From Dictyoglomus thermophilum H-6-12 (GTDB lineage Bacteria; Dictyoglomota; Dictyoglomia; Dictyoglomales; Dictyoglomaceae), in contig NC_011297.1 of assembly GCF_000020965.1 (NCBI RefSeq), positions 1,254,387 to 1,318,386 on the forward strand: a stretch of 64,000 nucleotides of DNA, given 5' to 3'. A model generated the notes under the pieces. The model was not told where the DNA came from. It did no database searches and worked only from the letters and a program-made list of their open reading frames with translations. Position numbers and translations under genes: made by a program. This document shows positions 26,931 through 29,730 of this stretch, one piece after another (within the stretch, counting starts at the first letter, position 1; each line of letters opens with the position of its first letter).

Positions 26931-27788
26931 CTATTCAACATTTAATATTAACTCGCGAATTTTTTCAAGCTCTTTTTTAATGTCCACAGCATAGAACATA
27001 ACCAAAGTCTTTGCAGTTTTACTAGAAAGAGTACTGACCTCTCTATGCATTTCTTGCACCATAAACTCAAGAGCCTTTCCTATAGGTTCTTCTTTTTCCA
27101 TCTCAGTTCTAAATCTTCTTATGAATTCATCTATTCTTATAATTTCTTCATTAATATCTGTCTTCATAAGTAACAGAGCTAATTCTTGATACAATCTATT
27201 CTCATCTATTTCTTTAAAACTAAACTCCCTTAATTTTCTTTCCACAAAACCTCTCGCCTCTTTATGCCACAATTCCTCCTCTCTTTTGATAGAAAAAAGT
27301 AAAGTCTCGATCCTATCAAGACTACTTTTTAAAGCATTATATATACTTTTACCCTCTTCCTCCCTTACCTTATTAAAATCCTTTATAAGAAGGGTCGCCT
27401 CATTCAATAATTTTAATACATCCTCATCATTAAAAACTCTATTCTCCATATAAAAAATCTGAGGATTAGCAAGTATCTCTTTCCAGTCAGAGATATTCTC
27501 TTCCTTACCTGTTATTTTTCCGAGCTCATCAAGAATACTATTCAACAAAGAAACATTAAGTTTATAAAGGTTTGAATAATCTTTAAGAATTTTAATGGAA
27601 AACAAAATGTATCCTCTCTTAATATGGTTCTTAATTTCTCGCGTTATATCTTGCTCCATAAAGGAGAGAGAGTCAGGAAGATTTACTCTAATTTCCAAAA
27701 ATCTATGATTATAGCCTTTTATCTCCAAAAAAAAGTTAAGGCTATTAATAGAGAACTCCCTAAATGCTGAGGCAGTCATGCTCCTCAT
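26931..27788 (-). CDS. yicC: YicC/YloC family endoribonuclease
   Basis: YicC-type RNase, reported in E. coli to help degrade small RNAs; 285 residues with RSMTASAFREFSIN (usual RSMTGYG...), EIKGYNHRFLEIRVNLPDSL, and the C-terminal MVQEMHREVSTLSSKT. First gene of the long minus-strand block. No Shine-Dalgarno site precedes the first ATG (MRSMTA); instead the predicted promoter start falls one or two bases before it, so the mRNA looks leaderless. A second in-frame ATG is three codons in, but its AGGAG lies too close to serve as a normal site. Confidence 0.9.
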   Translation of the reverse strand: MRSMTASAFREFSINSLNFFLEIKGYNHRFLEIRVNLPDSLSFMEQDITREIKNHIKRGYILFSIKILKDYSNLYKLNVSLLNSILDELGKITGKEENISDWKEILANPQIFYMENRVFNDEDVLKLLNEATLLIKDFNKVREEEGKSIYNALKSSLDRIETLLFSIKREEELWHKEARGFVERKLREFSFKEIDENRLYQELALLLMKTDINEEIIRIDEFIRRFRTEMEKEEPIGKALEFMVQEMHREVSTLSSKTAKTLVMFYAVDIKKELEKIRELILNVE

Positions 27789-27796
27789 TGTTATTT

Positions 27797-27825
27797 ATTT
27801 TACTTTATATAGAAATATTTGCCAA
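27797..27825 (-). promoter_or_regulatory. Promoter of yicC, sharing its -35 with the divergent rsmI promoter
   Basis: Minus strand: TTGGCA (27820-27825), 17-base spacer, TAAAAT (27797-27802). The predicted start at 27789-27790 is one or two bases before the yicC ATG at 27788. The -35 overlaps the plus-strand -35 in the shared heptamer TTGCCAA. Confidence 0.72.
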
Positions 27826-27846
27826 GTAGAAAAAAACTTATATAAT
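27819..27846 (+). promoter_or_regulatory. Promoter of rsmI placing transcription start at the ATG
   Basis: Plus strand: TTGCCA (27819-27824), 16-base spacer, perfect TATAAT (27841-27846). The usual start distance puts +1 at 27853, the A of the rsmI ATG. No ribosome-binding site could fit in the six bases between -10 and ATG, so the mRNA is probably leaderless. Confidence 0.78.
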
Positions 27847-27852
27847 TTACCT

Positions 27853-28716
27853 ATGGGCAAATTATATGTGGTAGCTACCCCAATAGGTAATTTGAAAGAC
27901 ATAACTATCCGAGCTATTGATGTTCTTAAAATGTGTCCTGTAATAGCAGCAGAAGACACAAGACATACCCTCATTCTTCTTAAAGCATATAATATAGAAG
28001 ATAAAATCTTAATTTCATACCATAAATACAACGAAGAGAAGAGGACTGAGCTTTTCCTTGACTTTTTATTAAACAAGAATATGGATGTTGCTCTTGTATC
28101 TGACGCTGGAACTCCATGTATTTCAGACCCAGGATACAAAATAGTAAGAGCAGCAAGAGAAAAAAACATTGAAGTTGTTTCCATACCAGGCCCTTCATCT
28201 CTTACAGCTTCTCTTTCAATTTCTGGCCTTCCTACAAACGAATTTCTCTTCATAGGCTTTCTTCCCAAAGAAGAGAACAAAAAACTTGAAAAACTTTTGG
28301 AGATTAAGAAAAGTAATATCAAGACTTTTGTGATATATGAATCCCCCAAAAGAATAATTAAATCTCTAAATACCATAAAAGAAGTATTTCCAAACTCCAC
28401 TATATGCGTATGCCGAGAGCTCACAAAAAAATTCGAAAGAACTTATTATGGAGATATAGAAAAAGTTCTTTTAGAAATAAGTAACGATCCTTATAAAGAA
28501 AAGGGCGAATATACAGTGATAGTTTTCTGGCAAAATAATTTGGAGCCTGAAGAAACTTTATCAATAGAAGCGCTCTTAATAGATCAAGTTGTAAAGCACA
28601 AAATTTCCTTGAAAGAAGCAGTAAATATAGTAGCTAAAATGTATAATATACCTAAGAAAGAGATTTATAAAAAAAGTATCGAATTAAAAAATAAGTTCAA
28701 AGAGGAGGAATTTTAG
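27853..28716 (+). CDS. rsmI: 16S rRNA (cytidine1402-2'-O)-methyltransferase RsmI
   Basis: Tetrapyrrole-methylase-fold enzyme that 2'-O-methylates C1402 of 16S rRNA. 287 residues with LYVVATPIGNLKDITIRA at the N terminus, AAEDTRHTLILL, LVSDAGTPCISDPGY, and FVIYESPKRIIKSL. A longer frame of 25 codons extends upstream but passes through the promoter; the ATG at 27853 gives the standard MGKLYVVATPIGNL start. No Shine-Dalgarno site is present. It begins the plus-strand set rsmI-plsX-pilT, with plsX three bases beyond its stop. Confidence 0.94.
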   Translation: MGKLYVVATPIGNLKDITIRAIDVLKMCPVIAAEDTRHTLILLKAYNIEDKILISYHKYNEEKRTELFLDFLLNKNMDVALVSDAGTPCISDPGYKIVRAAREKNIEVVSIPGPSSLTASLSISGLPTNEFLFIGFLPKEENKKLEKLLEIKKSNIKTFVIYESPKRIIKSLNTIKEVFPNSTICVCRELTKKFERTYYGDIEKVLLEISNDPYKEKGEYTVIVFWQNNLEPEETLSIEALLIDQVVKHKISLKEAVNIVAKMYNIPKKEIYKKSIELKNKFKEEEF

Positions 28717-28719
28717 AAT

Positions 28720-29730
28720 ATGAAAATAGCCTTAGATGCTATGGGCGGAGACTACGCACCTCTTGAAACTACAAAAGGAGCATTAGAAGCAATCAAAGAA
28801 AGTAATATTACTGTAGTATTAGTAGGCAAAGAAGAGGAATTACAAAAAATCCTAAAAGACTATGAGTATGACAAATCCAGAATAGAAATTGTAAATGCAG
28901 AAGAAGTAATAGAGATGCATGAACATCCTGCCTTTGCAGTAAAAGAAAAGGAAAACTCTTCTATAGTAAAAGCAATAAAACTATTGAAAGAAAGAAAAGT
29001 TGATGGGGCAGTATCTGCAGGAAACACAGGAGCAGTAATGAGCAGTGCCTTATTATATTTAGGAAGAATAAAAGGAATTAAAAGGCCAGCCATCTCCACC
29101 TTAATTCCTACATTAACCGAGGTTCCATCAATAATTCTTGATATAGGGGCAAATGTGGATTGTAAAAAAGAATATTTAGAACAATTTGCTCTCATGGGGA
29201 AAATATATATGGAAGAAGTTTTCAACATAAAAGATCCTAAAATAGCCCTTTTGAACATAGGGGAGGAAGAAGGAAAGGGAAACCAGCTAGCACAAGAGAC
29301 TTATAATCTTCTTAAAAATAATCCTATCTTTAACTTCATTGGAAATGTGGAAGGGAAAGATCTTTTCAAAGGAATAGCAAATGTTATTGTATGCGATGGG
29401 TTTGTAGGAAATATAGCCATCAAAACTGCCGAAGGAGTAGCAGAAACCCTTTTTGAACTTCTTTCTTCAGAAATAAAGAGTTCTCTTTGGAGCACTATAC
29501 TAGGAATGTTGTTAAAACCTAAATTTAAAAATGTTAAGAAAAAACTTGATTATAGTGAGTTTGGAGGAGCTCCTCTCTTAGGGGTAGATGGAACTGTAAT
29601 AATCTCTCACGGAAGATCAAAAGCAAAGGCAATAAAAAATGCATTAAAACTTGCGGAGAAAGTGGTAAAATTAGAAATAAATAGAAAAATTTTAGAGGGG
29701 TTGAGTAAAATAACAGATAGGGGGGATTAG
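28720..29730 (+). CDS. plsX: Phosphate acyltransferase PlsX
   Basis: Converts acyl-ACP to acyl-phosphate for phospholipid synthesis by PlsY (peripheral membrane). 336 residues: IALDAMGGDYAPLETTKGA, SSIVKAIKLLKERKVDGAVSAGNTGAVMS, LDIGANVDCKKEYLEQFA, LLNIGEEEGKGN, CDGFVGNIAIKTAEG, and YSEFGGAPLLGVDGTVIISHG. RBS AGGAGG lies 11 bases upstream. plsX usually sits near rpmF, fabD or acpP; here it lies between rsmI and pilT. Its TAG stop is only two bases before the apparent AUA start of pilT. Confidence 0.96.
   Translation: MKIALDAMGGDYAPLETTKGALEAIKESNITVVLVGKEEELQKILKDYEYDKSRIEIVNAEEVIEMHEHPAFAVKEKENSSIVKAIKLLKERKVDGAVSAGNTGAVMSSALLYLGRIKGIKRPAISTLIPTLTEVPSIILDIGANVDCKKEYLEQFALMGKIYMEEVFNIKDPKIALLNIGEEEGKGNQLAQETYNLLKNNPIFNFIGNVEGKDLFKGIANVIVCDGFVGNIAIKTAEGVAETLFELLSSEIKSSLWSTILGMLLKPKFKNVKKKLDYSEFGGAPLLGVDGTVIISHGRSKAKAIKNALKLAEKVVKLEINRKILEGLSKITDRGD

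What the first reader, a model, noticed from the sequence alone, without database searches (positions are those of the whole stretch)
27789..27853. Divergent promoters sharing a palindromic -35 and producing leaderless mRNAs
In 64 bases two strong promoters point outwards from a common TTGCCAA. The plus promoter puts +1 exactly on the rsmI ATG and the minus one places +1 within two bases of the yicC ATG. Neither gene has a Shine-Dalgarno site, whereas almost all other genes here have strong ones. Only one polymerase could occupy the shared -35 at a time, so the two operons may be expressed alternately. Both encode RNA-acting enzymes.
Basis: partly seen in the sequence, partly recalled or inferred. 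Interest (0 to 1): 0.65.

Follow-up and report, generated by a model that had tools for sequence, protein, structure and literature searches.

The report
Back-to-back gene promoters sharing one site
In a heat-loving bacterium (Dictyoglomus) two neighbouring gene clusters that run in opposite directions appear to start from one shared RNA polymerase docking site, with messages that begin almost exactly at the start codon; the layout is real and conserved, but it is an uncommon combination of two known designs rather than a new kind of switch.

Summary
In Dictyoglomus (probably D. thermophilum), rsmI has TTGCCA-16-TATAAT-6-ATG and divergent yicC has TTGGCA-17-TAAAAT-8-ATG. The two -35 hexamers share 5 of 7 bases (TTGCCAA, a pseudo-palindrome). 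No dinucleotide shuffle of the spacer (0 of 40,000) reproduces the pair. The hexamers, their spacing and an 18-bp core around the -35 are conserved in three Dictyoglomus species. yicC lacks a strong, well-placed Shine-Dalgarno (SD) site and keeps a -10-like box near its ATG in six species of two genera. rsmI is predicted leaderless in two species, near-leaderless in a third, and apparently not in the sister genus. Leaderless-type starts look like a small, real class here: 7 conserved TATAAT boxes lie 6-8 nt before an ATG, against about 1 expected, in 480 kb. The shared TTGNCAA recurs at three other divergent gene pairs in 780 kb (4 against 0.44 expected), so sharing and leaderlessness are separable. 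Alternate expression is unsupported: overlap is nearly forced once two leaderless promoters fit in 64 bp, and E. coli bidirectional promoters do not compete at basal activity. "Almost all other genes have strong SDs" is overstated. Most likely: two constitutive sigma-A promoters, back to back. No transcription start has been mapped.

The parts
27819..27825 (.). Shared pseudo-palindromic -35 element TTGCCAA (TTGCCA on +, TTGGCA on -)
   Evidence: identical in three Dictyoglomus species
27841..27846 (+). -10 element TATAAT of the rsmI promoter (16-bp spacer, 6 nt before ATG)
27797..27802 (-). -10 element TAAAAT of the yicC promoter (17-bp spacer, 8 nt before ATG)
27817..27834 (+). 18-bp core ATTTGCCAAGTAGAAAAA, identical in G000, G001 and G002; the only exact copy in each of those genomes. 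The A-tract lies upstream of the minus -35, a possible UP-like element (inferred)
27853..28716 (+). rsmI (tetrapyrrole-methylase-family 16S rRNA methyltransferase), predicted leaderless; followed by plsX at 28720
26931..27788 (-). yicC (YicC-like endoribonuclease), predicted leaderless or with a leader of at most 3 nt; followed by remA-like and gmk genes

Best explanation
The 64-bp spacer holds two ordinary housekeeping (sigma-A type) promoters placed back to back. They use the same 7-bp TTGCCAA, read in opposite directions, as the -35 element. Polymerase can dock in either direction, one at a time. Transcripts start about 62-65 bp apart, at the rsmI AUG and 0-3 nt before the yicC AUG, so both messages are leaderless or nearly so and are translated without a Shine-Dalgarno site. 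The arrangement is compact and constitutive; mutual exclusion probably has little effect at normal promoter activity. Shown: promoter hexamers, spacing, gene starts, conservation, absence of SD sites. Inferred: transcription starts, leaderless translation, polymerase behaviour.
For: Two high-scoring promoters (11/12 and 10/12) with near-optimal spacing, never jointly reproduced in 40,000 shuffles. Same hexamers, spacers and shared TTGCCAA in G001 (proteins 74-80% identical) and G002 (66-67% identical), while the rest of the spacer has drifted. Whole-genome search with the exact two-sided pattern finds only this locus in each of the three species. Upstream regions of several tRNA genes in this genome show TTGACA- or TATAAT-type elements, so the consensus applies. 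Conserved TATAAT 6-8 nt before ATG is in excess across 480 kb: 7 against about 1 expected, P about 7e-5, and P about 0.003 without these two genes. At divergent pairs TTGNCAA is flanked on both sides by a -10 at the right spacing 4 times against 0.44 at wrong spacings; at co-directional pairs 1 against 0.84.
Against: No mapped transcription start. A raw genome-wide count of TATAAT-N6-8-ATG is not above its reversed control (87+88 against 80+85), so the leaderless class is small. With the looser 5/6 -10 box the excess is weak (12 against about 5; P 0.007, and 0.04 without these two genes). rsmI in the sister genus has a longer predicted leader or no leaderless promoter. The minus -10 is TAAAAT, not consensus.
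Confidence: 0.66

Rival explanations
1. One or both mRNAs start further upstream, inside the opposite gene, and carry an AU-rich leader without an SD site that is read with help from ribosomal protein S1; the promoters seen here are secondary.
For: Weaker promoter-like sites lie inside the neighbouring genes (9/12 at +27682-27709 and -28018-27991). SD-less genes are about 10% of first genes. Upstream A/U bias of non-SD genes may reflect S1 sites rather than promoters (PMC5397173).
Against: The spacer promoters are far stronger and are conserved in position in three species. The conserved -10 boxes peak at the leaderless distance.
Confidence: 0.15
2. The shared -35 is a true switch: polymerase bound one way excludes the other, so the two operons are expressed alternately or inversely.
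For: Geometry: the two holoenzyme footprints would overlap by tens of base pairs (inferred). Activation of one direction can repress the other in E. coli (PMC12825309).
Against: Basal bidirectional promoters there showed no competition. No repeated operator was found here. The overlap follows from compactness. Both are housekeeping operons expected to be co-expressed.
Confidence: 0.07
3. The 18-bp core conserved around the -35 (ATTTGCCAAGTAGAAAAA) is mainly a regulator's operator, and the -35 likeness is incidental.
For: Conservation extends about 10 bp beyond the -35 on one side, in three species.
Against: Single exact copy per genome; elsewhere only scattered 2-3-mismatch matches. Promoter spacing to both -10 boxes is kept. 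An A-tract upstream of the minus -35 can also be explained as an UP-like element.
Confidence: 0.08
4. Only one of the two promoters is functional; the other is a by-product of the symmetry of TTGNCAA in AT-rich DNA.
For: Any TTGNCA followed by A gives at least a 5/6 -35 on the other strand, and -10-like boxes are common in AT-rich DNA (inferred).
Against: Co-directional TTGNCAA sites show no excess of an opposing -10 (1 against 0.84) while divergent ones do (4 against 0.44). Each side's -10 is conserved in three species, and each gene needs a promoter.
Confidence: 0.04

Closest known systems
Bidirectional promoters of bacteria and archaea (Warman, Grainger and colleagues; PMC12825309, PMC10268837)
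   Same: A symmetric promoter element is read in both directions; two polymerases cannot bind at once; often between divergent mRNAs.
   Different: There the shared element is the -10 and starts are 7-25 bp apart; here the shared element is the -35 and predicted starts are about 62-65 bp apart.
Classical back-to-back overlapping divergent promoters (known from E. coli and B. subtilis; from general knowledge)
   Same: Outward promoters with overlapping upstream elements between two genes.
   Different: Usually linked to a regulator gene and its operator, with leaders; here neither gene is a known regulator, no operator was found, and both messages are predicted leaderless.
Leaderless mRNAs of bacteria (Actinobacteria, Deinococcus-Thermus; M. 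tuberculosis study PMC3898074)
   Same: -10 box a few nt before the start codon, start within about 5 nt of it, no SD site, AUG start.
   Different: In Dictyoglomus the signal marks only a small class, about ten genes in 480 kb, against about a quarter of genes in M. tuberculosis; not experimentally shown.

Membership tests
Leaderless mRNA | -10 element at a distance that places +1 at or within about 5 nt of the start codon | tested here: met
   gap 6 (rsmI) and 8 (yicC), conserved in G001; gaps 10 and 9 in G002
Leaderless mRNA | no Shine-Dalgarno site before the start codon | tested here: met
   no SD match of 4 or more bases at 3-12 nt in G000 or G001 for either gene; at a 3-14 nt range only AAAG, 14 nt before yicC in G000
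Leaderless mRNA | mapped transcription start at the start codon | not testable with these tools
   no transcriptome held; paper searches for Dictyoglomus with leaderless or transcription start found no start-site study
Bidirectional promoter (shared -10 type) | divergent starts 7-25 bp apart around a shared -10 | tested here: not met
   predicted starts about 62-65 bp apart; separate -10 boxes
Back-to-back divergent promoters with overlapping -35 | outward promoters whose -35 elements overlap | tested here: met
   TTGCCA 27819-27824 and TTGGCA 27825-27820 share 5 bp; conserved in three species
Mutually exclusive transcription switch | rise in one direction lowers the other | not testable with these tools
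   needs in vitro transcription or reporters

The most novel reading that the evidence does not exclude
Dictyoglomus uses the symmetric 7-mer TTGNCAA as a recurrent two-way -35 element between divergent genes: a -35 counterpart of the known shared -10 bidirectional promoter, selected in divergent spacers and here combined with two leaderless messages.
Probability: 0.3. Interest if true: 0.5.

Novelty: new member of a known kind. Interest (0 to 1): 0.3.

Why it matters
It gives a clean, conserved, minimal example of two leaderless genes driven from one symmetric -35 in a thermophile whose transcription starts appear unmapped. If start mapping confirms it, it shows leaderless initiation coexisting with a mainly SD-based system, and suggests that -35 symmetry, like -10 symmetry, can yield two-way promoters. 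The regulatory 'alternation' idea adds interest only if competition is shown.

Tried and rejected
Regulon motif: the 18-bp core has one exact copy in each of the three species that hold it and only scattered 2-3-mismatch matches elsewhere, so it is not a repeated operator. Genome-wide leaderless signature by raw pattern: TATAAT-N6-8-ATG is no commoner than its reversed control, so the claim rests on conserved gene starts only. Alternative rsmI start at 27778: rejected, because it overlaps yicC and the family match begins at the 27853 ATG. SD-like AGGTGA before yicC in G001 and G002: lies about 17 nt from ATG and is absent in G000, so not an SD site. AGGAG inside yicC codons 2-3, before the second ATG: spacing of one base is too short, and the first ATG is conserved. 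Shared -35 in G005: TTTACAA/TTGTAAA can be read both ways but needs a 19-bp spacer on the rsmI side; not counted. Three further 'overlapping -35' pairs (positions 1335329, 1410712, 1527993) were dropped after inspection: mis-assigned starts, or not conserved in G001. Papers: the key 2021 paper on promoter symmetry is not held; a search for overlapping -35 regions of divergent promoters found nothing.

Full report
What is there. From general knowledge the two sizes fit D. thermophilum and D. turgidum. At 27789-27852 a 64-bp, 17% G+C spacer separates yicC (minus) from rsmI (plus). Pfam confirms YicC-like N- and C-terminal domains and a tetrapyrrole-methylase domain with an RsmI C-terminal match that is below the curated cut-off. 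yicC is followed by a remA-like gene and gmk, with priA and def further along; rsmI is followed by plsX.

The promoters. Plus: TTGCCA-16-TATAAT, ATG after six bases. Minus: TTGGCA-17-TAAAAT, ATG after eight bases. The two -35 hexamers share five bases inside TTGCCAA. TTGNCAA has the property that each strand reads TTGNCA, so it serves as a 5/6 or better -35 both ways. The plus start would fall on the A of the rsmI ATG; the minus start on one of the bases 0-3 nt before the yicC ATG.

More than chance. In 40,000 dinucleotide shuffles of the spacer no shuffle gave both promoters at the observed strength and distance; at a loose 9/12 cut 0.11% did, and nearly all of those also overlapped at the -35. 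So the existence of both promoters is not chance, but the overlap is largely dictated by fitting two leaderless promoters into 64 bp.

Conservation. G001 has the same 64-bp spacing with the same hexamers and spacers; G002 has the same hexamers with TATAAT 10 nt and TAAAAT 9 nt before the ATGs. The core ATTTGCCAAGTAGAAAAA is identical in all three, while the rest of the spacer differs. The exact two-sided pattern is found only at this locus in those genomes, and the core has no other exact copy. In the sister genus (G004-G006) yicC still lacks a strong, well-placed SD site (only weak 4-5-base matches 13-14 nt upstream) and has a -10-like box 8-11 nt before ATG, whether or not rsmI is next to it; rsmI there has moved away (G004, G006) or has its best predicted -10 about 36 nt upstream (G005). 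So the yicC start type looks older than the pairing, and the rsmI leaderless start is specific to this genus or was lost in the other.

Is leaderlessness usual here? In 480 kb of G000 compared with 475 kb of G001 (412 orthologue pairs), SD sites of five or more bases occur in both species for 84 of 144 first-of-unit genes and in neither at four or more for 14 (starts were chosen to favour SD sites, so SD-less genes are if anything undercounted). Exact TATAAT conserved 6-8 nt before an aligned ATG occurs seven times against about one expected from other distances (P about 7e-5; 0.003 without this pair); with a 5/6 box the excess is weak (12 against about 5; P 0.007, 0.04 without the pair). A raw whole-genome pattern count shows no excess. 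Upstream regions of several tRNA genes show TTGACA- or TATAAT-like boxes, so use of the sigma-A consensus is reasonable; sigma-70-family genes are present.

Is the shared -35 usual here? Among 14 TTGNCAA sites in divergent spacers (780 kb), four have a -10 at 16-18 bp on both sides, against 0.44 at wrong spacings; among 49 in co-directional spacers one does, against 0.84. The other three divergent cases are upstream of a pfkA-like gene (1219801-1219932; product from general knowledge), between a yebC-like gene and a HAD-like gene (1446413-1446517; products from general knowledge), and near 1506300; all three sites are present in G001. In the first both genes have SD sites or weak SDs and 40-nt gaps; in the second one side is leaderless-type. 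Sharing of the -35 and leaderlessness are therefore independent features that coincide here. Numbers are small and scoring cut-offs were mine, so this is a lead.

How it most likely works. Two constitutive sigma-A promoters, back to back, occupied by one polymerase at a time, producing leaderless or near-leaderless messages. Exclusion probably has little effect at basal rates: in E. coli, five bidirectional promoters showed no competition at basal activity, and only strong activation of one direction repressed the other (PMC12825309). Those promoters share a -10 and have starts 7-25 bp apart (PMC10268837), so they are an analogue and not the same class.

Verdict. Observation confirmed; leaderless reading plausible and conserved for yicC, less so for rsmI; alternate expression unsupported. 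A neat, compact member of known kinds, with a modest lead about TTGNCAA as a two-way -35 element.

Noticed in passing
G000:C1:1446413-1446517 (outside the window): Another divergent pair sharing TTGACAA as -35: a yebC-like gene with an SD site on one side, a HAD-like gene with TAAACT 8 nt before ATG and no SD on the other; almost identical in G001.
   Followed up: partly
G000:C1:1219801-1219932 (outside the window): Divergent pair sharing TTGTCAA as -35 with 17-bp spacers on both sides, upstream of a pfkA-like gene; conserved in G001; both genes have leaders.
   Followed up: partly
G000:C1 starts at 1335624, 1356520, 1381103, 1431328, 1486745, 1608248, 1611850 (outside the window): Further genes with a conserved -10 (TATAAT, or TAAAAT at 1356520) 6-8 nt before ATG and no strong SD in G000 and G001: leaderless candidates.
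   Followed up: partly
window 27795-28424 (-): A 209-aa open frame antisense to rsmI, starting with GTG; nothing suggests it is a gene.
   Followed up: no
G001 and G002, about 17 nt before yicC ATG: AGGTGA-like stretch in the minus spacer of two relatives but not in this genome; too far from ATG for a normal SD site.
   Followed up: no
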